NCBI GenBank assembly: GCA_028821605.1
Contig: JAPPFM010000040.1
Location: forward strand, 90,904-147,907
Direction of reading: 5' to 3'
From: Candidatus Poribacteria bacterium
Lineage (GTDB): Bacteria; Poribacteria; WGA-4E; WGA-3G
DNA: 57,004 nucleotides
The notes under the pieces: generated by a model
The model's input: the letters and a program-made list of their open reading frames with translations, nothing else
Databases searched by the model: none
Told to the model about the DNA's origin: nothing
Shown: positions 24,172 through 56,845 of the stretch, piece by piece
Position numbering within the stretch: position 1 is the stretch's first letter
How the letters are laid out: each line of letters begins with the position of its first letter
Translations under genes and position numbers: made by a program

Positions 24172-24417
24172 GATATGTAATACCTCCTGTCTGGTTGCCA
24201 TCAGTATAGGTTCTGACCTATCTCTATTTGTTGCGGTGGATCGTTAATGTGCCACCCCAACACCTGTCGTAGTATTGTCAAAGAGACAACTAACAAACAA
24301 CTTTAATTTCCTCCAAGGCATCGTCACTCTGCCCTGGATCTCTATAACGGTTGTAATACTTCTGTGTTCTACGAGTCAATTGTTGATAAATTATTTGCCC
24401 GCAGAGTACTTTCTTAG

Positions 24418-24532: not shown

Positions 24533-25264
24533 CTACTGTTTGAGGTTCGCCCACGTTACAGCAAGTTTGCCTTCCGGTTCAACAGCGAGATTCACCTCAC
24601 GCGGGTTATCGTAAAGGAACAGGTTATCAATGTAATAGTGCTGGAGCTGGTTGGTGTGAATTCCGAGCACACCCTTAGGATGAAGATTCTTGTCATCCCT
24701 CCACTCAGTAACCTTTTCATAGACGAGTTCGCCCTGTTTCTTTATATGGAGTTGAAAGTTGTTGTCATCCCCGAGTAACGCCAGCGTGTACCACTCCTTT
24801 GTCGTAACAGGAAACGGGAATTCGGCTCTGAAATCACGATACTCGTTCCAGGTACCCCGGTCATTCCCTTCACGCTTGTACCAACGCGCGGAGTTCGGGC
24901 GACCGAATCCATTCTCAGGCGTGATAATTAATTGATAGAAGTGTAAGTCTTCGTTGGCGCGAAACAGGAGCTCCATCTTGCTCGGAAAATCATCATCGTT
25001 AAACAGATAGAAATCAAGGCGAAGCCCGAAATCTTCAAATTCTATCAACCCATATCCAAAATCCGCTTCTCCGTTGCCATCTCCGCCGAGCCTCTCGATT
25101 TCCAGATGACCGCCCTTTACTTTCCAGGACTCGTCCTGACCTTTCCAATACTTATTGTTAAGTTTACCTTTAAAATCATCCGCTACGAGAAGTTTTGCAT
25201 CACTCATACGACACAAAAACAGAACAGATGCTATCAGGTAAAAAAGAATAGCAACTTTTCGCAC
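24533..25264 (-). CDS. Secreted DUF1080/LamG-like jelly-roll protein with KLAVTWA tail
   Basis: 243 residues from a GTG with GGAGG 8 bases upstream. Signal peptide: VAILFYLIASVLFLCRMSDA. The mature domain begins LLVADDFKGKLNNKYWKGQD and WKVKGGHLEIE, typical for DUF1080-like glycan-binding or hydrolytic jelly rolls, and ends HYYIDNLFLYDNP. The C-terminal tail is AVEPEGKLAVTWANLKQ. A strong promoter candidate is 34 bases upstream. The gene is divergent from an FGE-fold gene. Confidence 0.85.
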   Translation of the reverse strand: MRKVAILFYLIASVLFLCRMSDAKLLVADDFKGKLNNKYWKGQDESWKVKGGHLEIERLGGDGNGEADFGYGLIEFEDFGLRLDFYLFNDDDFPSKMELLFRANEDLHFYQLIITPENGFGRPNSARWYKREGNDRGTWNEYRDFRAEFPFPVTTKEWYTLALLGDDNNFQLHIKKQGELVYEKVTEWRDDKNLHPKGVLGIHTNQLQHYYIDNLFLYDNPREVNLAVEPEGKLAVTWANLKQ

Positions 25265-30497: not shown

Positions 30498-33428
30498 CTA
30501 CTCTTCTGAAGTCTCTTCCTCCATTCGGGTGGTTCCGTTACTCTGCCAATTATCCGCCTTCTCCTTGAGTCTCTCAAGGTCTTCAGAGTTCTTGATGTCA
30601 ACAATGTGGGGTGTAATGATGATAACAATTTCGGTATCCTCGACAGCAGTTTCAGTATTTTTGAAGAGCCGACCAATCAACGGAATGTCCCCTAAGATTG
30701 GAAGTTTGTTTTCCACCTGCTTCTGCTTTTTACGGATGATACCACCGACAACAATCCGTTGACCGTCTTCAACATCAATGTAGACGCTGAGCGAATTATC
30801 ATCGGTAATAGGGGCGTTGAAGTCGGTAAACTCAATGAAGTTACTGGCACTGATGTTTGTGATATCCAGCCCGATAGTGCGTTTACCATCCTTACCTGCT
30901 TGCGATTTGGCGATATAAGGTGTAAGCGAGATATTGATGCCGACAGGTGGATCAATAAAATCGTAGTTGAAGAGCGGTTGTGAGACCGTCTCACCCAAGA
31001 TACTGGTGGTATCAACACTCTGGAGGAACGGAATACGGCGGCCACTACTCCACGTGGCGGCTCTGGAATCTCGTGTCAAAAGCACCGGTGTTGAGAGGGT
31101 TTGCACCTTGTTCTCGCGCATAAGGGTGTGGAGAAGTGCCATATACTCCTTGGTTGCCAAACCGAGGTTAAACCCTGAGATTTCCTGATCGAGTCCGAGT
31201 TGTGCGTCAAGTTCTCCGATAAGTGGATTTCCGGGTCTTGGAGATACACCGAAAATTTTGTTCTCTTTCGCTGTGAGTTCAATGCCGAGTTTAGTGGTCT
31301 CGTCAAGGGTGACTTCAAGAATTTGAATGTCGATCCAGACCTGACCTCGGACGAAGTCTAACTCCTTAATGAGTGCCATGACATCCGGCAGGTATCGCTG
31401 CTGTGTTGTGATAATCAGGGAATTCGTGTCGGGATCAGCAAAAACAGTGACTTTTCCACGTAAGGAATTAATGTCTTGCTGTTGTTGTCTTCCACCTGAG
31501 GCAAAGAACGCCCTAAAGCTAAAACCGCCATCTTCTTCGCCTGCCCAAACCTGCTCGAGGACTAACTGAAGCTGCTCAGCACTGCCATACTCAAGTCGAA
31601 TCGCCTTAGTAATCTCTTTCTGTCCTTCCGGTGTAGGGACATCCATGGAATTGATAAACTCTGTGATGAGCTCGAAGTTACGTTGTGTAGCGGTTGAGAC
31701 AATGACAGCGTTAAGCGTAGGATACGCTTCAGCAGTGACGTTCCCTGCCAATGACCCTTGCGTTTGATTACGGTTACGTTCAGCAAGAAAAAAGAAGAAG
31801 TTCCCAGTGTTGCTGGAGCTCCCTTGATAGACGTTGTTGATGGTAGCCGCAACGTTATCTGCGTCAGCAAATTTAAGTTTATACATGCGGGTCCCCCACT
31901 CCTGGTCCGGCATGTTGACATCAAGTCTTTTGATGAGCGAATCAATGGTTTCAAAGTTCTGGGCACTCGTTGATATGAGAATAGCATTGAGGCGTGAGTC
32001 AGCAACGAGATGAACCTCGCCTTGGACCCCGAAACCAGCGTTTTCAGTCGGTTCCCGGTCCCGGCGACGCCACCAAGGGAGGTCCCTATCTGCGCCTGCA
32101 CTGCCACCTTCAAAAAGGTCTTGCAGATTTGGAGTAAGGGTTTCAGCATCAGCATACTTAAGAAAATAGAGTCTGATTTCTTCTTGGGTTTGCTCTTGGT
32201 CAAGCTCATTGATAACTTTTTCGATGATAGAAAAGTTACGTGGGTCGGAGGAGACAACGATAACGTTGAGCCGATCATTGTGAGAGACGTTGACAGTGCC
32301 GACGATCCCTTCTTGGTCAAGTCCCTGTTCGCGTCGCCAGTTCGTTAATTTTGCGCGATCCCAAGCATCCATTCTGCGGCGGTCATTTCCAACCTCACCG
32401 GTGAGTACTTCTTGGAGGGTTTGCGCGACATCCTCAGCGGCTGCATATTGAAGCCGAAAAGTGCGAATCTGGGTTTGTGAGGTAGGTGAGACATCGAGTT
32501 CCTTGATGATCTCTTGCAGGAATACCAAATTTGCCTCAGAGGCTTTAAGGACGAGTGAATTGGAGTTAGGTTCCGGGATAATCTTGATGGTGCCATCAAG
32601 AACTTCGTAGCCGGTGCCGTCAGCCTTCATCTGTTCCGCTGCAGCTTTCGCCTCTTCTGCAGTAATACGGGCACCGCCGCTTTCAGGTTTACCCTCGTCG
32701 CGTCCTTCGCCTTGCTGCAAAACGTTTGTGAGGGCTTGTGCTAATGAATTAGCATCTGCATAAACCAGTGGGTAGATGAGAATCTTTAATGGGAACCTTT
32801 CACCTTCGTCAGCAACTTGTAGAATCGCAACGATTCGGCGTATATTGGAGGAGACATCGGTGATGACAAGCGCGTTTGTTCCGCTATCGGCGGAAATATG
32901 CGCCTGCTTGTTGAGCAGGGGCTTAAGGGCGTTTACCTGTTGTGACGCAACAACATTCGTCAATCGAATGATATAGGTTTGGATCTCATCAGTCATTTCA
33001 ACGAGTTCAGGGTTCGGCGGGATGCTTTTAACAACGCCTTTTGTCGCCAGCGCACGCGCAAAGGTTGTGACGAGGAGTGTACTATCGGTTCGAATGAGCG
33101 TGAGGTCATATTGTGTTAGGACAGTTTTGATTTTTTCGATGACTTCATCAAGTGTTACGTTTCTGAGATTTGTGAGTGCGAACCTTTTATCTCTAATGTC
33201 TTCTTCACTTGCGATGATGGTGAGGTCAGCCTCTCGCGAGAGCCATTCCAAGAGTCCTTTAAGTTCTTGGCTTGTAAAGTTAAAGTCGAAACGGATTGCA
33301 CGCCCCTGTTCGTCAGTTTCAGCGACACGCATTTCGGGCTGCTGTTCCTGCGCATAGAGTTCAGCAAGCCCAACAATGAGCAATCCTAAACAAAGTAATG
33401 AAATAAATGAGAGCCTTTTTCTTCGCAT
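30498..33428 (-). CDS. gspD: Type II secretion secretin GspD with six N1-type repeats
   Basis: 976 residues from the ATG at 33428 (an in-frame TTG is at 33437). A signal peptide (LSFISLLCLGLLIVGLAELYAQ) is followed by an N0 domain and by six N1/NolW-like modules, recognisable as IIRLTNVVASQQVNAL, YPLVYADANSLAQAL, FRLQYAAAEDVAQTL, YFLKYADAETLTPNL, YKLKFADADNVAATI and IRLEYGSAEQLQLVL. Ordinary GspD has three, which explains its larger size. The C-terminal secretin domain includes VWIDIQILEVTLDE and PILGDIPLIGRLFKNT. It forms the outer-membrane channel. It is the last gene of the operon. Confidence 0.95.
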   Translation of the reverse strand: MRRKRLSFISLLCLGLLIVGLAELYAQEQQPEMRVAETDEQGRAIRFDFNFTSQELKGLLEWLSREADLTIIASEEDIRDKRFALTNLRNVTLDEVIEKIKTVLTQYDLTLIRTDSTLLVTTFARALATKGVVKSIPPNPELVEMTDEIQTYIIRLTNVVASQQVNALKPLLNKQAHISADSGTNALVITDVSSNIRRIVAILQVADEGERFPLKILIYPLVYADANSLAQALTNVLQQGEGRDEGKPESGGARITAEEAKAAAEQMKADGTGYEVLDGTIKIIPEPNSNSLVLKASEANLVFLQEIIKELDVSPTSQTQIRTFRLQYAAAEDVAQTLQEVLTGEVGNDRRRMDAWDRAKLTNWRREQGLDQEGIVGTVNVSHNDRLNVIVVSSDPRNFSIIEKVINELDQEQTQEEIRLYFLKYADAETLTPNLQDLFEGGSAGADRDLPWWRRRDREPTENAGFGVQGEVHLVADSRLNAILISTSAQNFETIDSLIKRLDVNMPDQEWGTRMYKLKFADADNVAATINNVYQGSSSNTGNFFFFLAERNRNQTQGSLAGNVTAEAYPTLNAVIVSTATQRNFELITEFINSMDVPTPEGQKEITKAIRLEYGSAEQLQLVLEQVWAGEEDGGFSFRAFFASGGRQQQQDINSLRGKVTVFADPDTNSLIITTQQRYLPDVMALIKELDFVRGQVWIDIQILEVTLDETTKLGIELTAKENKIFGVSPRPGNPLIGELDAQLGLDQEISGFNLGLATKEYMALLHTLMRENKVQTLSTPVLLTRDSRAATWSSGRRIPFLQSVDTTSILGETVSQPLFNYDFIDPPVGINISLTPYIAKSQAGKDGKRTIGLDITNISASNFIEFTDFNAPITDDNSLSVYIDVEDGQRIVVGGIIRKKQKQVENKLPILGDIPLIGRLFKNTETAVEDTEIVIIITPHIVDIKNSEDLERLKEKADNWQSNGTTRMEEETSEE

Positions 33429-33445
33429 AACATCCAATCCTTTTT

Positions 33446-33556: not shown

Positions 33557-34843
33557 TTAAAATATTCGAGCGATGAGGAGGATATCCACATTTAAATTTG
33601 TTGCACCACGATCTTCGGAGTCCCGTCCGCGTCCCGCTGGACGCGCCGCTGTCTGCTTATCGGCAGAGATCCGCAAATCGCGCACCGTGAGCCATTTGGC
33701 ACCCGTTTCAATGAGGTGATTTAAGTTAACCAGTTTTTCGAGATCTGTTTTGAATTTCATTTCAACTGTGTAGTGTTCGGTTTGATACGTTAGTGGCACT
33801 AACGCCAGCTGCTCTAAGAGTGTCGCGCGCCGCTGCTGAATTTGCTCTATGTATTTGACAAGCGCATATTGGAGTTGATCCATATCCAAGGACTCGTCGG
33901 TGTAAGTGTCTGGTGCCTGTGTGAGAATCTCTAAAAGGATACTGTCCGTTCGCAATTGGGTTTCGACAGTAGCAGGCTTTGCCCCGATCCCGAAAATACC
34001 GGATGTGGCGGCGGTTCTGACTTTATGAACCTGTGTTTCAAAGAAATCCTGTCTGGAATCTGCCGCCCCTCGAAGCTGCCGCGTCAGCATGCCCTTGATA
34101 ACCCCTGCGAGTTTAATTCGGAGCGAGGCTGGTATTACCTCTGGAAGCGAAGCGAATTCCCACTCCGCCGCAGCGTCTACCGGATACATCGCCTCCTCCT
34201 TATTACTCGCGAGTTCTACTTTCTTTGTTGATGAATCTGTCTCAGACATTGAACCCTCTGTTTTATCTGATCCGGTATCCGTTTCATCTTCTGTCCCTGA
34301 CAACCACGCATCCATTAGTGCATTGTATGCGTCGTCTTCCGACTCTTGTTCAACCATTTCTGTGAGTTCTGCTTCTTCCGTCTCTATATGTTTGAGATAA
34401 TGATAGAGGACAAGATTCGCTCGGTTCTCCACCGTTAGTTTTTGAGTTTGTTTAGCGGTTCCGGGTTTCGTGAGAAGTTGATAATTCTGCTGAATACCAG
34501 CACGTCTGACGAGTGCATCAATACGGGATCTGATGACGGTCTCTGGAAGTTCAGCATCAAAGAGTGTAGCAGTGCGTTGTGTACCCGTACGTGCCTGCTG
34601 ATTCGATTCAGGTGCTAACCCGGTTTCCTTGTAAATCTCAGATTCAACAGGTTTGAGTACTTCGGCAGCACGCACCAAATCTTCAGTCTTTAACAACTGT
34701 TCCTGCTTCGCCTTAGCGTCTTGATTCGCAAATAAGCGATAAAAGGCAGGTCCGCCCTGTATCGCGAGCAAAATGAGGAGTAATCCCCCCAAGATACCAA
34801 GCAATATTCGGCTCCGTGGCGTTAATTGGAGATCCAGTTCCAT
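33557..34843 (-). CDS. gspM: GspM/PilO-like type II secretion inner-membrane component
   Basis: 428 residues. One N-terminal membrane segment (ILLGILGGLLLILLAIQGG) after a short cytoplasmic start, then a coiled coil and a long periplasmic part. The end (YTVEMKFKTDLEKLVNLNHL, then KWLTVRDLRIS) matches the ferredoxin-like half of PilO/GspM proteins. A long acidic insert (EDETDTGSDKTEGSMSETDS) makes it about twice the usual GspM size. Identification rests on topology and position between the PilM-like gene and gspD. Confidence 0.75.
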   Translation of the reverse strand: MELDLQLTPRSRILLGILGGLLLILLAIQGGPAFYRLFANQDAKAKQEQLLKTEDLVRAAEVLKPVESEIYKETGLAPESNQQARTGTQRTATLFDAELPETVIRSRIDALVRRAGIQQNYQLLTKPGTAKQTQKLTVENRANLVLYHYLKHIETEEAELTEMVEQESEDDAYNALMDAWLSGTEDETDTGSDKTEGSMSETDSSTKKVELASNKEEAMYPVDAAAEWEFASLPEVIPASLRIKLAGVIKGMLTRQLRGAADSRQDFFETQVHKVRTAATSGIFGIGAKPATVETQLRTDSILLEILTQAPDTYTDESLDMDQLQYALVKYIEQIQQRRATLLEQLALVPLTYQTEHYTVEMKFKTDLEKLVNLNHLIETGAKWLTVRDLRISADKQTAARPAGRGRDSEDRGATNLNVDILLIARIF

Positions 34844-34955: not shown

Positions 34956-36761
34956 TTATTCGTTTTTCTCGTCTTCAAGAGTTTCAGTCATAGGCGGTGA
35001 AAGACGCAGTTCTGTATCCGTTTCTGGTTCATCAATTTGTATTTCCGGCATTGGGTAGCGTTTCTTAGCGAATGCTTTGATAGCGGATGCTGTTAGGTTA
35101 CACCGCACCTGTACTTGAAAAATCTGTTTCCTGTTCTGGGTAATTGTTGTGACCTCACCGGGTCGGACATTGGTGAACACACCGGAACGATCAAGTGCGC
35201 CCAAGAGTGTATTGATGGCGTTATGAGAAGCACTTTCCAAATTGAATGTAATGCGCGCTATCGTTGGTTCGTGAAGGTTCGTAATATTGAAATTGGTCCA
35301 GGCAACCTGTGTTCTGTCTCCAAACATCTCGCTGAGGGCATATAAAATATCAAGTGGTGAGATATGATGCGCTAACATGTCAGTAAGTGCCAATTCTCTT
35401 CCAAGTTGTGCTTGTGCGGCAGCCATCGGTTGCGCGTAATGCGCAAGCTGCGCTTCTACCGCTTCGTTTCTATGTTGTTGTGCGCGTTGGAGCGTGTAAC
35501 CGCCGAAAAAGATTCCCCCAACCAACAAGATGCCCAATCCAGCAGCGGCTAAAAGTTGACGTTGCCGTGTAGTCTGTGTGAGTGTCTCAACTGCCTCTTG
35601 CGGCAACAGGGAAACCTGGGGTCCCGGTTTTAGCGCATTGAGTCCAACACCCAAAGGAACGGCAAGCGTATCACCCCACTCGTCCAGAATAGCTTCTACC
35701 CCCGAATGAAGGGGACGGATGTCAATATCTGCGTGCTGTTGGAGTGTGTGAACCGGATTCCACAATTGTGTCGGAATGTCGAGTTCTGCTTCACAAATGG
35801 ATGCGAGATCTTGGACACGGGCACCCTCACCACACAACCAGAGTTCGGTTTCCGCTTCTGCTGAATAGTTATCAGTTAAAGAATCTCCCGTCGCAGCCAC
35901 AGAACCTTCTTGTAACTGATCATTGATAACTGATGACTGACGACTATTCGATTCACGATGTGCGGTGGCAGCAGCAATGGAACGTTGAAGTTCCGCGATA
36001 AACTGCGTTGTCCATGTGGATGCCGGAGCCTCGCTTGCAGAGACGTGCTGTTTCTCCTGTGCTGCCGCCTCAATATCTATATTCAAGCTGCTGCTAATAT
36101 GTTCAGAGAGATGATTACCGCCGAGTCGGAAACTACGTGAAAAGCGGAGTTCCTGACCCTGCATGAAACAGAAATCTGTTTGTTCCGCACCTATATCAAC
36201 AACGAATGTAGACTTTGTGCATCCGCTGTTGGCTGCGACTTCCGCGATCGCTATCATCGACGGTGTGACACCCGATGGGGAAACGCCAATTTGTTCAAGG
36301 AGATCCAAATAACCTGTAACCGTCGCCCGCCGTGTGGATATTAATTCTACGGAGGTGGCTTCTGAGGTCCGCTGCACATCGTGATATGTAAAGATTGCTT
36401 CTTCAATTCGGAAAGGGAGTTCCGCTTCTGCAGCGATTGCGACGATGCTCGCGAGCTGTTCATCTCCTGCAGCAGGCAAATTGGCTAAGCGTTTCGTGTT
36501 CACCAAGAATCGCGGCAAGGCAAGAACAACTTCCGTACGATCCCGATTGAACAGTGAGCGAAGGTTCCCTTGTACCGGGGAGTCCCCAACAGATTCCCAA
36601 AGACGTTTCACCGATTCAGCGACCTGCTGTTGGTCTTCTTTGTCCGGATACATCACAATATTTGCGTTGATGAGATGCACAGCTCCAGATGACTGCTCAA
36701 GCTGAACCATTTTGGCTGTGTTTGTGCCGATGTCTATCGCTATGACTTGATTTTTTGCCAT
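34956..36761 (-). CDS. gspL: GspL-like fusion of PilM (actin-like) and PilN domains
   Basis: 601 residues. Residues 1-370 are the actin-like PilM/GspL-cytoplasmic domain: QVIAIDIGTNTAKMVQLE, EVVLALPRFLVNTKRL, FVVDIGAEQTDFCFMQG, FRLGGNHL, ELWLCGEG. A membrane segment follows (LLAAAGLGILLVGGIFFGGYTL), then a PilN-like coiled coil and ferredoxin-like domain (ISPLDILYALSEMFGDRTQV). It would link the cytoplasmic ATPase GspE to the inner-membrane platform. Codons 272-299 derive exactly from an inserted 84-bp repeat. A run of nine A residues, not a Shine-Dalgarno site, precedes the ATG. Confidence 0.88.
   Translation of the reverse strand: MAKNQVIAIDIGTNTAKMVQLEQSSGAVHLINANIVMYPDKEDQQQVAESVKRLWESVGDSPVQGNLRSLFNRDRTEVVLALPRFLVNTKRLANLPAAGDEQLASIVAIAAEAELPFRIEEAIFTYHDVQRTSEATSVELISTRRATVTGYLDLLEQIGVSPSGVTPSMIAIAEVAANSGCTKSTFVVDIGAEQTDFCFMQGQELRFSRSFRLGGNHLSEHISSSLNIDIEAAAQEKQHVSASEAPASTWTTQFIAELQRSIAAATAHRESNSRQSSVINDQLQEGSVAATGDSLTDNYSAEAETELWLCGEGARVQDLASICEAELDIPTQLWNPVHTLQQHADIDIRPLHSGVEAILDEWGDTLAVPLGVGLNALKPGPQVSLLPQEAVETLTQTTRQRQLLAAAGLGILLVGGIFFGGYTLQRAQQHRNEAVEAQLAHYAQPMAAAQAQLGRELALTDMLAHHISPLDILYALSEMFGDRTQVAWTNFNITNLHEPTIARITFNLESASHNAINTLLGALDRSGVFTNVRPGEVTTITQNRKQIFQVQVRCNLTASAIKAFAKKRYPMPEIQIDEPETDTELRLSPPMTETLEDEKNE
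35865..35948. repeat. 84-bp palindromic repeat inserted in frame inside gspL
   Basis: Ends ATAGTTATCAGTTAAAGAA and AACTGATGACTGACGACTAT are those of the intergenic family (compare 33446-33556). Its length is 28 codons and it begins and ends on codon borders, adding NSRQSSVINDQLQEG...LTDNY to the actin-like domain without breaking the frame. Confidence 0.8.
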
Positions 36762-36858: not shown

Positions 36859-38445
36859 CTAATCCTGTAGCCAATATTTTACAATTATCTGGTCACCCGT
36901 CCGGTCAATGACACCAACACAAGTTGAGATAACTTTGTTTGCGGTATCAACACCGTTTGCCTCAATGCGATATCCGTGTGAACGGTAAGTTACCGAATCA
37001 ACGACTTCACGGAAGGTTTCAAAGTTAATATCCTCTAATTGCGACAGTTCGGAGATACGAGTGAACGGATTCCCTTTTATCTCCTCTTCAGTAAAACTTT
37101 GTACCTGCGAGGTGTCGGGTGCATCTTCTTCGCGGCGTTCGACAATTGCTTGTGCTTTTTGTGGGTCCATCCCCGGTAGCAGTGCTAAGATCTCGGGTGG
37201 TGCTGTGTTTACGTTGATGAGACCTTCGCGGATGTCCCCCTCTTTTAGTGTTATTTTGTCAATAATACCGATGAATTCCTGCTGCGTTAACATCTTCACA
37301 TCTTTGATTGCATCAATGTTCTGGAAAAGCCCCTGTGAATCCCGATGGTCAACGATGCGTTCAGCAATGCCTTCATCAACACCCTGCAAAGATTGCAAGG
37401 TGTCTACATCGGCGGTATTGATATTAACTTGTCCACTTTCTCCCTGTGGTTGTTGTGGTTGTCCTTGCCCCGGTGGGCTATTTCCTTGTGGAGCGTTGGT
37501 TTCTTCCTCTTCATTCGCTTCCCCACCGGCATCTTCTGTGGTAAGTTGGTCTTGTATGTTGTTAAAAAGTTCGTCAGAAACCGCTTGCACATCCAGGAGT
37601 GAAGCGAACCTGTCAAAATCTCGTTGCTGGATAAGCGATTCCGCTTCCGCTTGCGAGAAAACAGGTTGGTTTTGCTGTGTGTTAATTTGTGTCAGTTCAT
37701 TTGCATCCGCCGTATTGACATCGACAAGCGGTTCACCGTTCGGATCCGTGCTGGCATCAACCGAGTAAATAGTGGTTAAATCAACAAGCCCCGGTGGCGT
37801 GTCTGCTGACGTTGCTTGTGGGCTGCCAAAGCCTGCTGTTGACGGACCTTCAGCCGTCCCCGTGGATGTCGGTTGCACACTCACACTGTTTTGTGCAAAC
37901 GTCCCGGCTTGTTGTGCCCCGTAGAGAAGTTCAGATGTTATCCCTTCGACCCGTGCGAGGTCACGAACGGTGCGGTAAGGTCGTCCCTCCACAATTCTGT
38001 TGGCAAGTTCTTGAATAAACGCCTCATCTGATATAGTGCCCACCTGCATGAGTAAATTATTGATGAGGTCTACATCGACAGTGTTGATATTAACCTTTGA
38101 TGCTTCATCTGTAATTGTCACAGAATAGTTTAAGAAATTGCCAACCTGAATTCCATCTTCAACCTGTCCTTGGATGGGTTCAGCCCAAGTTTCACCAAGC
38201 GAATCGAAAGGGGTCTGGTCTGCACGTACGACAGCGAGTGTCCACTCAAAGCCCGCTCTTGCGGCATAGTGGAACTTCGCCCTGTCCAAAAAATTCCGCT
38301 GCGTCCGCTGTTCTATATGAATCGAGTAAAGCAGCTGCGTCGCAAGAATAGAGAGTATGGTGAGTATCCAGAGGGTTGAGACGAGAGATAACCCGACCTG
38401 CTCCTCGTAGAATGTGCGGAAACCCCGCGTTCTAAATAGCGTCAT
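36859..38445 (-). CDS. gspK: GspK-like minor pseudopilin with expanded helix-hairpin-helix motifs
   Basis: 528 residues from the ATG at 38445, with GAGG ten bases upstream. The N-terminus (EEQVGLSLVSTLWILTILSILATQLLY) is a prepilin-like helix with Gly before the mature start. Four NxNTAxxxxL units follow: VNINTVDVDLINNLL, VDVNTADANELTQI, VNINTADVDTLQSL and INVNTAPPEILALL, two of them with clear helix-hairpin-helix tails (GVDEGIAERIVDHR, GMDPQKAQAIVERR). Usual GspK is near 330 residues. A low-complexity linker (QGNSPPGQGQPQQPQGESGQ) separates units 2 and 3. It would cap the pseudopilus tip with GspI and GspJ. Confidence 0.88.
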   Translation of the reverse strand: MTLFRTRGFRTFYEEQVGLSLVSTLWILTILSILATQLLYSIHIEQRTQRNFLDRAKFHYAARAGFEWTLAVVRADQTPFDSLGETWAEPIQGQVEDGIQVGNFLNYSVTITDEASKVNINTVDVDLINNLLMQVGTISDEAFIQELANRIVEGRPYRTVRDLARVEGITSELLYGAQQAGTFAQNSVSVQPTSTGTAEGPSTAGFGSPQATSADTPPGLVDLTTIYSVDASTDPNGEPLVDVNTADANELTQINTQQNQPVFSQAEAESLIQQRDFDRFASLLDVQAVSDELFNNIQDQLTTEDAGGEANEEEETNAPQGNSPPGQGQPQQPQGESGQVNINTADVDTLQSLQGVDEGIAERIVDHRDSQGLFQNIDAIKDVKMLTQQEFIGIIDKITLKEGDIREGLINVNTAPPEILALLPGMDPQKAQAIVERREEDAPDTSQVQSFTEEEIKGNPFTRISELSQLEDINFETFREVVDSVTYRSHGYRIEANGVDTANKVISTCVGVIDRTGDQIIVKYWLQD

Positions 38446-38458
38446 CTGTAAGACTCCT

Positions 38459-39364
38459 CTAAGGTCCACCTCCTGCTCCACCGCCAGCAGTAGCACTTAC
38501 TGGAAGATACACCATTGTCGATTGGGTCATACCAATGGACTGTCCTGTAGGCTGCCGCTGCGTCGTGAGTTGTGCTGTATTTGTACTTACAGGTGCCTGT
38601 GACTCTCCTTGGGCAGTTATCAGGATCTGTACAGCACTCGGAAGACTCTCCGTATCATCCCATGAGGTTCTCCATGCTTCTGCTTCAGCATCAAAATACT
38701 TTAAATCAAAACTGATGAGCCCAGCAATGAGCGTCGAAATATCGGCATAAATCGGTTCTCCATTTTCGTCCGTTTGCGGGACCTCACCCGTTTGTAGAAA
38801 GGGACCGATAACAGTTTCTGGATCAAGTGTTGTTGTTCTCACACGAAAGAGGGCAAGTTCACCCTCTTGTTGATCCATAGTGTTGCCCGTAAATGCATCT
38901 TGAAGGTTAGAAGAACCCAAGCTGGATTCGCCAGGCACCGGTTCGGGGCCGACGAAGTAAGCCACACGCTGCACATCACTTACAAGCGGTATAAGAGGCT
39001 GCGAGGAGGTCTGTGCTTGGAAACTTTCGAGTTGTTTTAAAAAGGGGTCTGGATCTGTCCTGACGAGCGTGACAAAACTGAGCATATCTCTATCCCCTAA
39101 TTGGCTCGGTCCATCTTGGGTGTAGATGACAAGTTCTGGTTCCTCAAGTGAGACTTGCATGTTACGAAGATCCGTCACCAGTCGATCCATCGCGACCCGG
39201 CACCTTTGTGCCGCCAATATCCTTGTTTTTGTCTGCTGATACGCATCTACGGCTGTTTTGAAAGCAAAATATGCAGATCCTCCAATAATGACGAGGATAC
39301 TGACTGCCATGAGCATTTCAACGAGTGTAAATCCACTTTCGGTGCGAATTTCTTGAGTCTTCAT
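38459..39364 (-). CDS. gspJ: GspJ-like minor pseudopilin
   Basis: 301 residues. Prepilin cleavage motif ESG/FTLVEMLMAVSILVIIGG with Glu at +5, followed by the hydrophobic helix. The rest has FLQTGEVPQTDENGEPIY and FDLKYFDAEAEAWRTSWDD, the region typical of GspJ. The end is rich in Gly and Ala (AGGGAGGGP). The gap to gspK is 13 bases. It would form the pseudopilus tip complex. Confidence 0.9.
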   Translation of the reverse strand: MKTQEIRTESGFTLVEMLMAVSILVIIGGSAYFAFKTAVDAYQQTKTRILAAQRCRVAMDRLVTDLRNMQVSLEEPELVIYTQDGPSQLGDRDMLSFVTLVRTDPDPFLKQLESFQAQTSSQPLIPLVSDVQRVAYFVGPEPVPGESSLGSSNLQDAFTGNTMDQQEGELALFRVRTTTLDPETVIGPFLQTGEVPQTDENGEPIYADISTLIAGLISFDLKYFDAEAEAWRTSWDDTESLPSAVQILITAQGESQAPVSTNTAQLTTQRQPTGQSIGMTQSTMVYLPVSATAGGGAGGGP

Positions 39365-39498: not shown

Positions 39499-39918
39499 CT
39501 ATTCCTGCTGTGCTTGTGGCATCTGTCGGTCCGCAATATAGGTACTCATAGACATTGAGCTCTCTCTGTTTCTATGCAGCCATGTGACGGTCACTTGAAC
39601 CCGACGGACGTTTTCAACATCTTCGGAGTCCACATCCTCAACGACAGAACGCCAACGATAGCGTGTATTCTCACCAAATTCACCAGTTTCTTCACCAACA
39701 TCTGGATAACCTTCCATCTCAATTTCTGACATCCGAAATTTCAGGAGGTAAAGAGCGGTAGTGCTGTTATCTGAAAGTCCTTGATTACGTGCAGCGGTCG
39801 TAAACGCCTGCAAAAGTGCAGGCAAGATCGCCGCCAAAATTGTTAATGTTACAAGTATCTCGACGAGTGTAAAGCCGTCTTTTTCTCCTGATCTTGAGTG
39901 TATAATTGATAAATTCAT
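39499..39918 (-). CDS. gspI: GspI-like minor pseudopilin
   Basis: 139 residues. Cleavage site KDG/FTLVEILVTLTILAAILPALL with Glu at +5. The mature part contains MSEIEMEGYPDVGEETGEFG and YRWRSVVEDVDSEDVENVRR followed by VQVTVTWLH, as in GspI. Its own end carries the first bases of the neighbouring repeat (AACTATTCC). Confidence 0.9.
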   Translation of the reverse strand: MNLSIIHSRSGEKDGFTLVEILVTLTILAAILPALLQAFTTAARNQGLSDNSTTALYLLKFRMSEIEMEGYPDVGEETGEFGENTRYRWRSVVEDVDSEDVENVRRVQVTVTWLHRNRESSMSMSTYIADRQMPQAQQE

Positions 39919-39974: not shown

Positions 39975-40676
39975 TTACTCGTTACTGGTTACTATTCCTA
40001 ACATTTCAATCTCTGCGGGTGTGAGTTGTCGGACTCGGACACGCCCACTTGCTGCCTCGACATTAACAGACATTATCTGATTGCGCGAGTTCCGCAGGTA
40101 CACGACTGTCTCCTCAGAGGTCGCAGTCGGCGAAAAGTAGACGTATTCCACGCCGGAATCGATGCTTGCAGTTCTTCCGTTGTGATTGGTTACCATTGCG
40201 GCTAATGTTACGTTTCGTTCCATTGCGTTAGGCACACCAAGGATGCCGCTGGTGCGTGCCAAAGGAACCCGTTGAGTGGAAGTCCCCGTTGTAAGTGGGT
40301 TGCCAGTTGCGCTGTTCTGTCCGGCAGCAACAACCGTGGAATTTTGAGCAGTTAGCAAAGACGTGAGTGGATTCGCTGGATTGAACGTCTCACTGGAGGC
40401 AAGCCAGTAACGATCCCTGTCAAGATCAAAAACGACCAAATGCGTCGTCCGGTCCGTGATCGCCATATCTCTGGCAAACATGAGTAGACTACGGAGCGAG
40501 TAGGCTGAAGACTTCAAACGGCGTGTTGCCGCGAAACCTTTCAGCGTCGGCATAGAGATCGCTGACAGGATGCCGATAAGCGTTAAAACGATTAGTAGCT
40601 CCGTAATGGTGAAACCACTCTGGAATTGAGAATTCGGCGCGATACGGAGATCGCGCCGAATAGCCGTTCGTAACAC
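39975..40676 (-). CDS. gspH: GspH-like minor pseudopilin
   Basis: 233 residues from a GTG 4 bases after gspG. Cleavage site QSG/FTITELLIVLTLIGILSAI with Glu at +5. LKSSAYSLRSLLMFARDMAI is the conserved amphipathic segment of GspH/FimT proteins. The C-terminus VEYVYFSPT and VYLRNSRNQIMSVNVEAASGR fits the GspH beta domain. Confidence 0.9.
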   Translation of the reverse strand: MLRTAIRRDLRIAPNSQFQSGFTITELLIVLTLIGILSAISMPTLKGFAATRRLKSSAYSLRSLLMFARDMAITDRTTHLVVFDLDRDRYWLASSETFNPANPLTSLLTAQNSTVVAAGQNSATGNPLTTGTSTQRVPLARTSGILGVPNAMERNVTLAAMVTNHNGRTASIDSGVEYVYFSPTATSEETVVYLRNSRNQIMSVNVEAASGRVRVRQLTPAEIEMLGIVTSNE

Positions 40677-40680
40677 TGTT

Positions 40681-41136
40681 TTAATTTACCGCCGCATTCT
40701 CATCTACCCAGTTGGTGATGTCAGCGTCCAGTTCTGTACCGCCTACCTTTCCATCTTTACCCATCGAATACAAGTCGTAGTCGTATCCGTAGCGACTACT
40801 CGGTTGGCGATAGACGTATTGATTGCTCCATGGATCCATGAAACTTGGGTTATCAACATACGGGCCATCCCAATTGAGGGGTGCGGGACTTGGTGCCCGC
40901 CATAACGCACTTAAGCCCTGTTCGGTGGTGGGATATTCCCCTGTGGCTATGGCATACTGTTCCAGAGCGGTTTTGATACCGTTAATTTCTGTTTGCGCTT
41001 TCGCAACCTTCGCTTGCTGAGGGGCATTTATGACTCGCGGAGCGATGAAGGCTGCTAAAATGCCTAAGATGACAATGACAATCGTTAGTTCAATTAGGGT
41101 TAATCCGGATTCATCGGATTTTAATTGCATGAACAT
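40681..41136 (-). CDS. gspG: Major pseudopilin GspG
   Basis: 151 residues from the ATG at 41136 (MFMQLKSDESG/LTLIELTIV); an upstream in-frame TTG would add 12 unneeded residues. Glu at +5 is present. The signature LAAFIAPRVINAPQQAKVAK and ALEQYAIATGEYPTTEQGLSAL, followed by WGxY-like WDGPYVDNPSFMDPW and YDYDLYSMGKDGKVGG, is diagnostic for GspG, including the calcium-site loop. It builds the pseudopilus shaft. Confidence 0.96.
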   Translation of the reverse strand: MFMQLKSDESGLTLIELTIVIVILGILAAFIAPRVINAPQQAKVAKAQTEINGIKTALEQYAIATGEYPTTEQGLSALWRAPSPAPLNWDGPYVDNPSFMDPWSNQYVYRQPSSRYGYDYDLYSMGKDGKVGGTELDADITNWVDENAAVN

Positions 41137-41282
41137 TATAATTTTTTCTCCTATAGAAATGACTGTCAGCAATTGATTATGGGTTGTCAGTCAATCGTTG
41201 TGGTTATTGCTAATGTTTCCCTCGTCACAACGTTCTTTTTATCGAAAGTCGAAAGCAAAGCGACCCGATAGCCGAGAGCCAT

Positions 41283-42509
41283 TTAGTTGCTTAATAATTG
41301 GTTCGCCTCGAAAATCGGGAGGATCATCGCAACAGCGATAAACCCGATAACAATTCCCATCAGCAGAATGACTAACGGACCGATGGAACTCGTCAAACGT
41401 TCAAGGCTCTTTTTTATTTCTAAATCGTAATATTCAGAGAGTTTACTTAGCATGTGAACAGGTTCGCCGGATTCCTCGCCGACAGCCACCATGTGCGTGA
41501 CAAATTCGGGAAAATCCCCACTTTTACCGAGTTCACGAGAGAGCGTGGAACCCTGTTCAACTTCTGTTTCGGCTGCAGCGACGACGTTACTGTACACCTT
41601 GTTCCCTATAGTGTCTTTGACGACTTGTAGGGCGGGCAGCATCCGTACACCGTTTTCCAAAAGTGTTGCCATCGTTCGAGTGAAACGCACAATGGCAAAG
41701 GTGCTAAATATTGGTCCAATAAGTGGTAATTTAAGTCTCAGGCGGTCAAACCAGACTTGTCCGGTTTCACGTCGGAGATATTGTTTTAAACCCGCTATAC
41801 CTAAGATGACAACGACCAATCCGATCCACCAATAGGTTTGGAACGCACCGGTCGCCCCAATGAGAATTTGTGTTGGCAGCGGTAAGGCGACACCGAGATC
41901 GTTGAACATTGCGGTAAATTTCGGTATCACAAGAATCATGAGTACGGCGACAGCAGTAACACTGAGCGTCAATAAGATAATCGGATAGAAAAGTGCTGAG
42001 ACGACATCGTTTTTAAGAAGCCGTTGGCGTTCCGCGAATTCCGCAAGACGTTCCAGAACTAAACCGAGTACACCACCACTTTCGCCTGCTCTCACCATGT
42101 TGACATAGAGGTCCGAAAACACTTTGGGATGTTGCGTGAGCGCGTCATGAAAAGTCGCACCGTGTTCCACATCGTATTTCACTTGCGAGATAATACGATG
42201 GAGTGCTGGATTTTGGATTTGCCCAAGTGTAACCTCTAATGCACGCGGCAGCGGAACATGCGCGTTTACCAGTGTTGCCAGTTGATATGTGAAGAACTCA
42301 ACATCCGCGGGTTTGATTCTGCTGCGTCCAATTTCAAGCCACCGACGTACATTACTTGGGACCGCCTCCTCAACCTCCTCAACGATCTGTGTGGGCCAAT
42401 AGCCCATCTGTCGTAATCGAGAGATAAGTTCGGTTTTGGAGTCGGCTTCAAGTGTGTTATTAACGGTGTCTCCACCATGGGTGAGTGCTTCGTATCGGAA
42501 TATTGGCAC
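41283..42509 (-). CDS. gspF: Type II secretion inner-membrane platform protein GspF
   Basis: 408 residues. The GTG at 42509 (MPIFRYEALTHGG) is chosen because GAGAGG lies 6 bases upstream and homologues begin MPxFRYEA; a TTG two codons earlier sits directly on that site. Two copies of the T2SSF domain are seen (FTYQLATLVNAHVPLPRALE and VRFTRTMATLLENGVRMLPA), each followed by the GE(S/E)SG motif and hydrophobic helices. 41162-41282, between F and G, has only weak repeat traces. Confidence 0.95.
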   Translation of the reverse strand: MPIFRYEALTHGGDTVNNTLEADSKTELISRLRQMGYWPTQIVEEVEEAVPSNVRRWLEIGRSRIKPADVEFFTYQLATLVNAHVPLPRALEVTLGQIQNPALHRIISQVKYDVEHGATFHDALTQHPKVFSDLYVNMVRAGESGGVLGLVLERLAEFAERQRLLKNDVVSALFYPIILLTLSVTAVAVLMILVIPKFTAMFNDLGVALPLPTQILIGATGAFQTYWWIGLVVVILGIAGLKQYLRRETGQVWFDRLRLKLPLIGPIFSTFAIVRFTRTMATLLENGVRMLPALQVVKDTIGNKVYSNVVAAAETEVEQGSTLSRELGKSGDFPEFVTHMVAVGEESGEPVHMLSKLSEYYDLEIKKSLERLTSSIGPLVILLMGIVIGFIAVAMILPIFEANQLLSN

Positions 42510-42546
42510 GATCAACCTCTCTATCGCAATTCAGGAAGATGAGGGA

Positions 42547-42658: not shown

Positions 42659-43483
42659 CTAAAAACGCTTTAGACTTCCCCACATTGTTGCGAGTTTCGC
42701 TTTGGGCATTACTGATAACCCAGCATTTTCCGGGATACTGTCGCCGGTGATCACAACATTGTCGAATCTCGCCGTCTGGTTCGAGAGACCCAAACCCGCC
42801 GCTCCCGTCAAGAAGTCATGGAATCCGTCTAACTGTAATGGGTGAAATATCTTTATATTTCCAGGATTAGGTGGGTGCGCCTTTTTGGCAGCTTCAAAAC
42901 GCTCGAAGGTTTTACGGTTTGGCAGTCGGACAGGTCCAATAATCAACTCACCGTTAATCCAAAAGTTTAGGGTATTTTCTTCAACTGCCAACTTCAACTT
43001 CGACCACTTCTTTAATTTTAATGATCGATGGAGTTCGGCATGTGTATAGAAGATTGTGTTTTGGTCATGAAAATTGCCAGCAGCAAACAAAGCTTCAGAG
43101 GCGTTTTTGCGAAATCCTGGCAAATCACCGATGAGACACCATACCACCCAACTCTCCTTGATTCGAGCGGCAATAGCGATATTGCTGGGACCCGGTTTTT
43201 CAAGCGGTTTGACATCAAATTCGATGGTGTAATCGCGCCATGTCTCATCACCAATTGTGAGCAAACGTGTGCTTTCATCGGGGCTTACCGCATGAAGTTC
43301 ACCATTAACGATTTCCCAAGAACCGGGCGGCGGATCATCTACATCCAAAAAAAGAAAATCCTGCGTCAAAATAAGCTCCTGCCACGCCTTCAAGTTTCCG
43401 TTATCAAAGTTTTCCAGATATGTTCCTGCCCTCGTCGAAAAGGCAGCGAGGAAAACAATACTTGCAATCACTACCAACTTCAT
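42659..43483 (-). CDS. Secreted jelly-roll protein with KLATMWG tail, encoded inside the type II secretion operon (paralogue 1)
   Basis: 274 residues. Signal peptide: MKLVVIASIVFLAAFSTRAG. The mature part is a concanavalin-like/DUF1080-like domain: YLENFDNGNLKAWQEL, GSWEIVNGELHAVSPDE, WRDYTIEFDVKPLEKPGPSN, WSKLKLAVEENTLNFWINGE, TARFDNVVITGDSIPE. The C-terminus is LSVMPKAKLATMWGSLKRF. AAAGGAGG is 5 bases before the ATG, the best ribosome-binding site in this stretch. It is a tandem paralogue of the next gene and lies between gspE and gspF, so it is a candidate substrate of the system. Enzyme activity is unknown. Confidence 0.88.
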   Translation of the reverse strand: MKLVVIASIVFLAAFSTRAGTYLENFDNGNLKAWQELILTQDFLFLDVDDPPPGSWEIVNGELHAVSPDESTRLLTIGDETWRDYTIEFDVKPLEKPGPSNIAIAARIKESWVVWCLIGDLPGFRKNASEALFAAGNFHDQNTIFYTHAELHRSLKLKKWSKLKLAVEENTLNFWINGELIIGPVRLPNRKTFERFEAAKKAHPPNPGNIKIFHPLQLDGFHDFLTGAAGLGLSNQTARFDNVVITGDSIPENAGLSVMPKAKLATMWGSLKRF

Positions 43484-43548
43484 ACCGGCCTCCTTTAGTA
43501 GCCGTCAATTATTAGCAGTTAGGCACATCTCAGGATCACACGTATATC

Positions 43549-44334
43549 TTAAAAACGCTTTAGACTGCTCCACATCGTAGTGAGTTTAGTTCTGGGGTTT
43601 ACCGACAACCCACCTCTGTTCGGGATACTGTCGCCGGTGATCACAACGTTGTCGAATCTCGCTGTTTGATTTGAAAGTCCTAAGCCTGCTGCGCCTGTCA
43701 AAAAGTCTTGGAGCCCGTTCAGCTGCAATGCTGGCAATTCCTTCCCTTCTTCAGCTGCATGCTCCTTTCTGATAGCATCAAAACGCTCAAAACTTCTACG
43801 GTTTGGAAGTTGGACAGGTCCAATAACCTGATTTCCATTAATCCAAAAGTTTAGAATGTTTTCTTTAACGTCCAACTTTAGTTTCGACCATCTGTTTAAT
43901 TTCAAAAATCGAAAGCGTTTGCTATGCGAAAATAAGAATGTATTTGGATCCTGAAAATTGCCAGCAGCGAACTTAACTTCGGAGACGTTGTCAACAAATG
44001 GCAAATCACCGATGAGACACCATACAAGCCAACTCCCCTTGATTCGAGCGGTAATAACAATATTGCTGGGACCTCGATTATCAAGCGGTTTGACATCAAA
44101 TTCAAAGGTGTAATCTCGCCACGTCTTATCACCAACTGTAAGTAAACGGGTCCAGCCATCAGGACTTACCGCATGAAGTTCACCGTCAACGATTTCCCAG
44201 GAGCCCGGCACGGCATCAGCCATGAGAAGTTCTTGCCATACGCCCAAGTTATTATCAAAATCCTCCAAAAACACCCCTGCCCCTGCCGAGAGTGTGAAGA
44301 GTAAAATTATACTTCCAATCACTACTAATTTCAT
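43549..44334 (-). CDS. Secreted jelly-roll protein with KLTTMWS tail, encoded inside the type II secretion operon (paralogue 2)
   Basis: 261 residues from the ATG at 44334; an in-frame GTG three codons earlier abuts the GAGGA site. Signal peptide: MKLVVIGSIILLFTLSAGAG. Long identical stretches with the neighbouring gene (for example GELHAVSPD, GLGLSNQTARFDNVVITGDSIP) show a recent tandem duplication. The tail is LSVNPRTKLTTMWSSLKRF. It begins 36 bases after the gspE stop and is surely co-transcribed. As with its paralogue, secretion by the linked system is inferred. Confidence 0.88.
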   Translation of the reverse strand: MKLVVIGSIILLFTLSAGAGVFLEDFDNNLGVWQELLMADAVPGSWEIVDGELHAVSPDGWTRLLTVGDKTWRDYTFEFDVKPLDNRGPSNIVITARIKGSWLVWCLIGDLPFVDNVSEVKFAAGNFQDPNTFLFSHSKRFRFLKLNRWSKLKLDVKENILNFWINGNQVIGPVQLPNRRSFERFDAIRKEHAAEEGKELPALQLNGLQDFLTGAAGLGLSNQTARFDNVVITGDSIPNRGGLSVNPRTKLTTMWSSLKRF

Positions 44335-44370: not shown

Positions 44371-46140
44371 TTATACAACTTCCACGAAATCGAATTCGTC
44401 TTCCTGTGTTAACCGGACGACCTCGTCAATCGTTGTCAATCCTGCAGCGACCTTACGCCAACCATCTTCACGTAAACCTTTCATGCCCATCTGGACAGCG
44501 AGACGACGAATCTCACTCGTCGATGCCTGTTTCAGTGCTATCGAACGAATTTCATCAGTCATGAATAAAACTTCAAAGAGACCGATTCTACCTTTGTAAC
44601 CTCTCCCTCGGCACTCCTTACATCCGACTGCGCGCGGAATTTTCAGATCGTAAGGGATAGCGGCACTGTTGCCGTTACCGTTACCTATAAGTCCCGTCAG
44701 TTCGTGCATGTCAGGGGAATGCATCTCACAACACGCCCTGCAGACACGGCGAGCAAGTCTTTGGGCGATGACACCCTCTACCGTGGAGGCAACGAGATAG
44801 GGTTCAACGTTCATATCAATAAGTCGCGTGATTGCGCCGGGAGCATCGTTCGTGTGAAGTGTGCTAAAGACAAGGTGTCCCGTAAGTGAGGTATGAATTG
44901 CCATCTCCGCGGTCTCGTAGTCACGAATCTCACCGACCAATACCTTATCTGGGTCCTGCCGCAGGATATGGCGGAGTCCCTGAGCGAAGGTAAAGCCTAT
45001 ATCTGGATTGACCTGGATCTGGTTGATGCCCTCTAATTCATACTCCACTGGATCCTCGAGCGTGATGATTTTGACATCCGGCGAGTTAATCTCTTTCAAA
45101 CAGGCGTAAAGCGACGTGGTCTTCCCACTACCGGTAGGTCCGGTTGCGAGGATGATACCGTGCGGTTTACGAATCATGCGTTCAAAGAGTTGGAGGTTGT
45201 CCTCGGTTAATCCGAGTTCTGTGAGTCCAAATTCAATAGACTGTCGGTCGAGGATACGGAGTACAACGCTTTCGCCATGGAGCGTTGCGACCGTCGGTAC
45301 AGTGGAAACACGGAGGTCTATTTGCCGATTGCCGACGCTGGCAATCTGCCTACTGATTTTGCCATCTTGCGGACGGCGCCGTTCTGCGACATCCATCTCC
45401 GCCATGATTTTGATTCGGGAAGTGATTGCGGATTGGAGATAAGCAGGGGGTTGCGGTTGGTCTTCTAACACACCATCAACGCGGAACCGGATTTTCAATT
45501 GGGTCGGGTAGGGTTCAATGTGAATATCACTTGCTCCCATCCGGACGGCATCAATAATCATCTGGTCAACGGCGTGTATAACCGTCGGATCTTGGCTGAG
45601 ATCCTTCTCATCAATTCCGAAGTCTTCAATCGTCTCGCGTTCAAGCGTGGCAGCTGCGCCGACGGGGCCCTTGATACCAGCACTGAGCAAACTCTCAGCA
45701 GTGCGTCCATAGAGACGAACAATTGCCTCATCAATATCTCCCTCATCTGCAAGGACAGGCGTAATTTGGTAGCCTGTGATGAGTTCAATCTCGTCAATGA
45801 GAATGACATCCTGAACATCTACCATTGCGATGGTCAGTTGATCGTCTGTCAACGCAATAGGTACGATTTTATTTCGGTATGCGAACCCCGGTGAAACCTT
45901 TTCAAGTACGTCAGGTTCAGGCGCAACATCCTCTAATTGGATGAAGGGTGTTCCGTATTCAACGCTCTTCGTCGCGAGCGCGAGAACATCAGATGATACG
46001 CCGTGTTTAGAAAGCACAGCTGCCTCTGACGCTCCGGTTTGTTCTATTTCTGCGATGATGTCCGTATAGTCCTGTTCCGAAATGAGAGATGCCTGTCGCA
46101 TCACCTCGACGAGTGAAGCCGTATTCAGTGTCTGTTGCAT
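44371..46140 (-). CDS. gspE: Type II secretion ATPase GspE
   Basis: 589 residues. An N-terminal MshEN/N1E domain (FIQLEDVAPEPDVLEKVSPG, VPIALTDDQLTIAM) precedes the hexameric ATPase: DIHIEPYPTQLKIRFRVDG, Walker A ATGPTGSGKTTSLYA, Asp box ITLEDPVEYELEGINQIQVN, Walker B DPDKVLVGEIRD, His box TGHLVFSTLHTND. The zinc tetracysteine is present as CRACC...GCKEC. It powers pseudopilus assembly. It is the first gene of the operon. No clear promoter was identified in 46141-46498. Confidence 0.97.
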   Translation of the reverse strand: MQQTLNTASLVEVMRQASLISEQDYTDIIAEIEQTGASEAAVLSKHGVSSDVLALATKSVEYGTPFIQLEDVAPEPDVLEKVSPGFAYRNKIVPIALTDDQLTIAMVDVQDVILIDEIELITGYQITPVLADEGDIDEAIVRLYGRTAESLLSAGIKGPVGAAATLERETIEDFGIDEKDLSQDPTVIHAVDQMIIDAVRMGASDIHIEPYPTQLKIRFRVDGVLEDQPQPPAYLQSAITSRIKIMAEMDVAERRRPQDGKISRQIASVGNRQIDLRVSTVPTVATLHGESVVLRILDRQSIEFGLTELGLTEDNLQLFERMIRKPHGIILATGPTGSGKTTSLYACLKEINSPDVKIITLEDPVEYELEGINQIQVNPDIGFTFAQGLRHILRQDPDKVLVGEIRDYETAEMAIHTSLTGHLVFSTLHTNDAPGAITRLIDMNVEPYLVASTVEGVIAQRLARRVCRACCEMHSPDMHELTGLIGNGNGNSAAIPYDLKIPRAVGCKECRGRGYKGRIGLFEVLFMTDEIRSIALKQASTSEIRRLAVQMGMKGLREDGWRKVAAGLTTIDEVVRLTQEDEFDFVEVV

Positions 46141-47677: not shown

Positions 47678-47713
47678 TGTTGTTTCCTCCTCAAGCGGTT
47701 GCGCCTAATTAGG

Positions 47714-49387: not shown

Positions 49388-49403
49388 TGAAAACCTCCGT
49401 TTT

Positions 49404-56402: not shown

Positions 56403-56845
56403 TTATCTTTTCAATTCTGCCCAAGTTGCCGTTGCTCGCCTTGTTGGATTTACACTTGCCTTTCCGATATTGGCGTTCACCCAAGCATTTACACTTATAT
56501 CGGACACATCAAAATCTTCGGTAAAAAGAACTGGAAAATCTACAGCGTATTCAGACCTTATCGCGTTCCCGTTCTCTATCATGTTTTGATTAACAAAAGT
56601 CTTTACGGTTGGTAGCACCTTATCTTCCAATATGAATATGTAAGCGATAGGTCTTCCAAAAGCACCGCGATGTATACCGTCAAGTGTTGTATCACTCTTT
56701 TCAAACAACACGATAATCTCTTTGCCCAATATAAGACTTTCCAAATAATTCCGACTTTGTATCGCCTCTTTTTTTTCTTGTTCAGTTTCGGCGTTCAACT
56801 CGGGAGTATCTATTCCAGCCAGCCTCACTCTAACACGCCTTGAAG
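56403..56845 (-). pseudogene. Staphylococcal-nuclease-like gene, 5' part lost to an IS3 insertion; KATATWAELK tail
   Basis: What remains starts in mid-domain with TSRRVRVRLAGIDTPELNAE, the heart of the SNase (OB) fold including the Asp of the calcium site; upstream strands with the first catalytic Asp are missing. The later part (GAFGRPIAYIFI) matches the family loosely, where catalytic Arg and Glu would be expected. The frame runs unbroken into the IS end at 56846, so the insertion cut the gene; a GTG at 56828 is only an internal codon. The end SVNPTRRATATWAELKR carries the shared tail, which suggests that the whole protein was secreted. Confidence 0.75.

What the first reader, a model, noticed from the sequence alone, without database searches (positions are those of the whole stretch)
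42659..44334. Two tail-bearing secreted paralogues sit between gspE and gspF: candidate cargo marking the tail as a type II secretion signal
The operon runs gspE, paralogue 2, paralogue 1, gspF onward on one strand. Type II secretion operons rarely hold cargo genes inside the machine genes. Both paralogues carry a signal peptide for the first export step and end in the tail. The other tail proteins could then use the same route. This links an undescribed tail to a specific machine.
Basis: partly seen in the sequence, partly recalled or inferred. Interest (0 to 1): 0.8.

Follow-up and report, generated by a model that had tools for sequence, protein, structure and literature searches.

The report
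Tail-bearing secreted genes inside secretion operon
In one genus of sponge-associated Poribacteria, one or two copies of a secreted, sugar-binding-like protein gene sit inside a type II secretion operon; their shared C-terminal tail is a real, apparently undescribed tag found across the whole phylum, but the insertion is patchy and mobile, so it does not show that this machine exports the tail.

Summary
Observation confirmed. On the minus strand the order is gspE (44371-46140), two paralogues (43549-44334 and 42659-43483, 69% identical), gspF (41283-42515), then gspG-K, L, M, D. Both paralogues have a signal peptide and end in the tail. The window is Candidatus Poribacteria.

The tail (xLxVEPxxKLATTWGxLK plus 0-8 residues) is real: 83 of 84 profile hits lie within 7 residues of the C terminus, at least 60 of 72 carriers have a signal peptide, none a lipobox. 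It occurs in 85 of 85 held genomes of the phylum (22 genera). I found no description of it.

The inference to type II secretion is weak. The E-F insertion occurs in 14 of 38 genomes of one genus, needs about 10 state changes on the gspE/F tree, and is absent from all 42 assessable genomes of other genera, which still carry many tails. Close relatives of the second paralogue sit in an unrelated tail-gene island in six genomes. T2SS and tail are both near-universal, so co-occurrence is uninformative.

A rival appeared: all nine genomes tested show SprA-like (T9SS translocon) matches, PorV-family proteins and 27-79 T9SS-type tails. The export route stays open.

The parts
44371..46140 (-). gspE, T2SS ATPase (589 aa)
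   Evidence: TIGR02533 574 bits and TIGR02538 (PilB) 587 bits, both under cut-off; only T2SSE match over cut-off in the genome
43549..44334 (-). Secreted tail-bearing paralogue next to gspE: signal peptide, ConA-like/3-keto-disaccharide-hydrolase-like domain, C-terminal tail
   Evidence: PF06439 E=5e-7, over cut-off; alignment
42659..43483 (-). Second secreted tail-bearing paralogue, next to gspF; carries an extra TQDFLFLDV stretch shared with copies at another locus in relatives
   Evidence: PF06439 E=1.8e-7, over cut-off; 81-84% identity to copies outside the operon; tree
43549..43608 (-). C-terminal tail of the gspE-side paralogue (LSVNPRTKLTTMWSSLKRF and stop)
42659..42718 (-). C-terminal tail of the gspF-side paralogue (LSVMPKAKLATMWGSLKRF and stop)
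41283..42515 (-). gspF, T2SS inner membrane platform protein
   Evidence: TIGR02120 389 bits, E=3e-116, cut-off 424
40681..41172 (-). gspG, major pseudopilin
   Evidence: TIGR01710 143 bits, over cut-off
39975..40676 (-). gspH-like minor pseudopilin
   Evidence: TIGR01708 E=1e-10
39499..39918 (-). gspI-like minor pseudopilin
   Evidence: TIGR01707 43.4 bits, cut-off 44.35
38459..39364 (-). gspJ-like minor pseudopilin
   Evidence: TIGR01711 E=2e-9
36859..38496 (-). gspK-like with helix-hairpin-helix repeats
   Evidence: NF037980 E=1e-25
34956..36761 (-). GspL/PilM-like protein
   Evidence: PF11104 E=4e-21
33557..34843 (-). GspM-like protein
   Evidence: NF040576 E=3e-4, weak
30498..33437 (-). 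gspD, secretin (979 aa)
   Evidence: TIGR02517 372 bits, over cut-off
16797..17582 (+). Another tail-bearing secreted protein, LamG domain
   Evidence: PF13385 E=3e-18; tail
23305..24201 (-). Another tail-bearing secreted protein, no Pfam match
24533..25264 (-). Another tail-bearing protein, no Pfam match
56403..56828 (-). Tail-bearing SNase-like protein; signal peptide not seen in this frame
   Evidence: PF00565 E=2e-6; tail

Best explanation
The two genes are members of a multi-copy Poribacteria family of Sec-exported, ConA-like surface or extracellular proteins that carry a phylum-wide C-terminal tail. One or two copies have entered the gspE-gspF junction in some lineages of one genus, in the reading direction of the operon, and are lost, regained or exchanged often. 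Shown: signal peptide, tail, phylum-wide distribution, patchy and mobile insertion. Inferred: the tail acts after Sec as a C-terminal sorting signal, read by an outer-membrane export or anchoring system. Inferred: the position inside the T2SS operon is mostly incidental, perhaps tolerated because it gives envelope-linked expression, and does not identify the machine.
For: Tail in 85/85 genomes and 22 genera; 150 of 150 scored candidates matched in the own genome. 83/84 hits at the C terminus, at least 60/72 with signal peptide, 0 lipobox. Carriers have different domains: 35/70 LamG, 12/70 3-keto-disaccharide hydrolase, others CBM9, F5/8C, SNase. E-F insertion in 14/38 genomes of the genus; the paralogue is absent from that junction in the other 24 and in 42 genomes of other genera. 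Copies 81-84% identical to the second paralogue sit outside the operon in six genomes, including single-contig G083, mostly next to other tail genes. The gene tree mixes operon and non-operon copies (at least 3 forced changes) and conflicts with the gspE/F tree: the window's gspE-side paralogue groups with G048 and G077, its gspE/F with G068, G076 and G081. 15 tail genes observed in 602 kb around gspE/F, roughly 10-14 expected from background.
Against: All intact inserted genes at the E-F junction belong to this one tail-bearing family and share orientation, which a selective link to T2SS would also predict; within the genus 15 were seen against about 6-10 expected. Genomes are one per species and many are drafts. 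Tail function has not been tested by any experiment.
Confidence: 0.72

Rival explanations
1. The tail is a T2SS export signal and the inserted genes are cargo co-expressed with their machine.
For: Co-directional insertion with signal peptide and tail in 14 genomes; T2SS is near-universal in the phylum, as is the tail.
Against: Insertion patchy and genus-limited; relatives of the genes elsewhere; no overall enrichment of tail genes near gspE/F, and none in other genera where about 5 were expected. [quoted passage not shown]
Confidence: 0.2
2. The tail is read by a divergent T9SS-like translocon (SprA-like barrel with PorV-family partners), as a short alternative to the known T9SS C-terminal domain.
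For: All nine genomes tested (eight genera) match TIGR04189 SprA in several collinear stretches, in eight of them within one open frame of about 2,150-2,300 aa (split over contigs in G012); 0 of 14 control genomes match. The own protein scores 151 bits, E=2e-44, and passes the Pfam cut-off of SprA_N. 13-30 PorV-family matches per genome, several over cut-off. 27-79 TIGR04183 T9SS-type tails per genome. A C-terminal signal on Sec-exported proteins is the logic of T9SS (PMC10994853).
Against: The SprA score is under the 200-bit NCBIfam cut-off; no match to solved SprA chains by phmmer or profile. The tail is about 18 residues and is not the 7-stranded T9SS domain; none of 70 tail proteins matched TIGR04183. 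The T9SS motor was not tested. No tail genes next to the PorV loci examined.
Confidence: 0.35
3. The tail is a surface-retention or anchoring motif, not an export signal; export follows another route.
For: Short and basic (mean net charge +2), with invariant W and K; carriers are mostly carbohydrate-binding-like folds.
Against: No partner identified; no sortase-like or transmembrane pattern in the tail.
Confidence: 0.3

Closest known systems
Type II secretion system operon (gsp)
   Same: GspD and GspG over NCBIfam cut-offs; E, F, H-K, L/PilM-like and M-like in order
   Different: One or two non-machine genes between E and F; no gspC seen among the window proteins scanned
3-keto-disaccharide hydrolase / ConA-like family PF06439
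   Same: Both paralogues over the Pfam cut-off
   Different: Only about 30 bits; enzymatic activity not shown; carries the tail
T9SS type A C-terminal domain (TIGR04183)
   Same: C-terminal position on Sec-exported proteins
   Different: About 18 residues, other sequence, no TIGR04183 match; TIGR04183-type tails exist separately in the same genomes and were noted in Poribacteria before (PMC3909097)
GlyGly-CTERM, PEP-CTERM and MYXO-CTERM tags
   Same: C-terminal tag shared by many otherwise different exported proteins of one lineage
   Different: GlyGly-CTERM, and by my own knowledge the others, combine a short motif, a hydrophobic helix and basic residues (PMC6219818, PMC11980579); this tail has no hydrophobic helix

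Membership tests
T2SS | Secretin GspD | tested here: met
   TIGR02517 372 bits, cut-off 351
T2SS | Major pseudopilin GspG | tested here: met
   TIGR01710 143 bits, cut-off 89
T2SS | Assembly ATPase GspE and platform protein GspF | tested here: inconclusive
   Strong matches, both under the equivalog cut-off
T2SS | GspC | not tested
   Not seen among window proteins scanned; no dedicated search
T2SS cargo | Sec signal peptide | tested here: met
   Sequence
T2SS cargo | GspD-dependent export | not testable with these tools
   Needs an experiment
T9SS cargo, type A | TIGR04183 C-terminal domain | tested here: not met
   No match in 70 tail proteins at E 0.1
T9SS machine | SprA/Sov translocon | tested here: inconclusive
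   151 bits under a cut-off of 200; Pfam SprA_N over cut-off; no match to solved chains
T9SS machine | PorV-family protein | tested here: met
   227 bits, cut-off 90
T9SS machine | GldL/M (PorL/M) motor | not tested
GlyGly/PEP/MYXO-CTERM tags | Hydrophobic helix followed by basic residues at the C terminus | tested here: not met
   Tail composition by column

The most novel reading that the evidence does not exclude
Poribacteria use a phylum-wide tail of about 18 residues as an outer-membrane export or surface-display signal on dozens to well over a hundred Sec-exported proteins per genome, read either by a T9SS-like SprA/PorV translocon outside the Bacteroidota or by the T2SS, which would then be the first short shared T2SS signal.
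Probability: 0.35. Interest if true: 0.85.

Novelty: new variant of a known kind. Interest (0 to 1): 0.52.

Why it matters
A short tag shared by a large part of the secretome of an uncultured, sponge-associated phylum would let anyone predict its exported proteins from sequence and ask which machine reads it. It also makes an older puzzle testable: a 2014 study found T9SS-type tails in Poribacteria but no T9SS structural genes (PMC3909097); a SprA-like protein and PorV-family proteins are now visible.

Tried and rejected
Presence/absence correlation of tail and T2SS in the phylum: no power, both are near-universal. Genomes that first looked T2SS-free (G003, G005, G012, G025) hold gsp genes, often at contig ends; G037 stays unresolved. 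AlphaFold model of the gspE-side paralogue from 12 close sequences: mean pLDDT 47, unusable, so no fold search was run. Control of the tail outside the phylum: not possible with the handles available. Literature search for the tail: nothing found. No plasmid relatives. Promoter and terminator scan: near chance level. Solved-structure search with the SprA-like protein: no SprA match.

Full report
What is there. The window is from Candidatus Poribacteria: the nine relatives of the paralogue found in the named genome collection are all Poribacteria. The minus strand reads gspE, two secreted paralogues, gspF, gspG to K, a GspL/PilM-like and a GspM-like protein and gspD. The paralogues are 69% identical, have Sec signal peptides, match PF06439 and share the same C-terminal tail.

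The tail. Six proteins of the window carry it. A first profile gave 150 matches in the own genome, where the tool scores at most 150. A refined 18-column profile found it in all 85 held genomes of the phylum and all 22 genera, from 19 to 108 each, with 108 as the cap of the search. A sample of 400 kb of the own genome held 6, which alone would suggest about 90 per genome; together with the 150 matches the true number is probably between 150 and 220. In a hand collection 83 of 84 hits end within 7 residues of the stop and at least 60 of 72 distinct carriers have a clear signal peptide; several of the rest are cut or start at a codon other than ATG; none has a lipobox. W and K are invariant, V, K and L nearly so, and mean net charge is +2. 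Of 70 carriers half match LamG, 12 the 3-keto-disaccharide hydrolase family, and single ones CBM9, F5/8C or SNase; others have no Pfam match. The collection was chosen by profile score and so favours close matches. No library model or paper that I could search describes the tail.

Is the insertion conserved? Regions around gspF were fetched from 80 other genomes. Thirteen of 37 other genomes of the genus, plus the window's own, hold one or two copies between E and F (G000, G076 and G050 two). The other 24 genomes of the genus have E and F adjacent, and so have 41 of other genera; G046 has a partial gspF in the gap instead, and G012 has its gspE on another contig and cannot be judged. On a gspE+gspF tree the label needs 10 changes, 9 of them forced by well-supported branches. 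The paralogue tree does not follow that tree. Relatives 81-84% identical to the gspF-side copy lie in a different neighbourhood with other tail genes in G083, G062, G053, G075, G054 and G078 (partly seen, as some contigs are short); G074 and G080 have further copies elsewhere. The stretch that the G083 copy shares with the window's second paralogue is little more than the coding sequence. So this looks like a gene that moves as a unit among sites.

Does it point to T2SS? In 602 kb around gspE/F of 80 genomes the only tail genes are the E-F inserts, 15 in all. Background density predicts about 6-10 within the genus and about 5 in other genera, where none was seen. Within the genus there is a mild excess from events that are not independent; over the phylum there is none. 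T2SS genes are found in practically every genome, so presence cannot discriminate. The T2SS reading remains possible, but the insertion adds little to it.

A rival machine. Nine genomes each gave 27-79 TIGR04183 matches, in line with an earlier report on Poribacteria (PMC3909097). That report found no Por structural genes, and a 2016 survey detected T9SS in no clade but Bacteroidetes (PMC4793230). Here all nine genomes show SprA matches, eight of them in one long frame of about 2,150-2,300 aa. The own protein (L123:2399-9136) matches TIGR04189 at 2e-44, under the curated cut-off, and SprA_N over the Pfam cut-off. PorV-family matches number 13-30 per genome. Eight of the SprA-like proteins align with each other at 43-81% identity to the first. 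Against it: no solved SprA chain was matched and the motor was not tested. In the own genome a tail-bearing LamG gene lies 1.7 kb upstream of the SprA-like gene, with a TnpB gene between; the other genomes looked at show no tail gene there.

Verdict. The claimed link to T2SS is not established; the position is best read as a lineage-limited, mobile insertion.

Noticed in passing
L123:2399-9136 (own genome C2), L243-L249: SprA-like protein of about 2,245 aa, one long frame per genome in eight of nine genomes tested, in a phylum reported to lack T9SS structural genes.
   Followed up: partly
own genome, e.g. L252 (C32:124572-125552): 13-30 PorV-family matches per Poribacteria genome, several over the curated cut-off.
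   Followed up: no
own genome, 79 places: A second, separate class of C-terminal tails (TIGR04183, T9SS-type), mostly on larger proteins.
   Followed up: no
G000:C2:157940-158347 (L158): A second gspG-like gene away from the operon, seen in several genomes of the phylum; no other gsp gene matched beside it.
   Followed up: no
L034:10193-10543: Partial gspF duplicate between gspF and gspG; similar fragments in G048 and G073.
   Followed up: no
L237:13136-16072, L238:4563-7532, L239:5654-8578: Proteins of about 970-990 aa, related to each other, whose start looks to me like an ECF sigma factor, near tail genes.
   Followed up: no
window 46499-49444: HEAT-repeat and DUF3352 genes upstream of gspE, kept at that place across the genus.
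   Followed up: no
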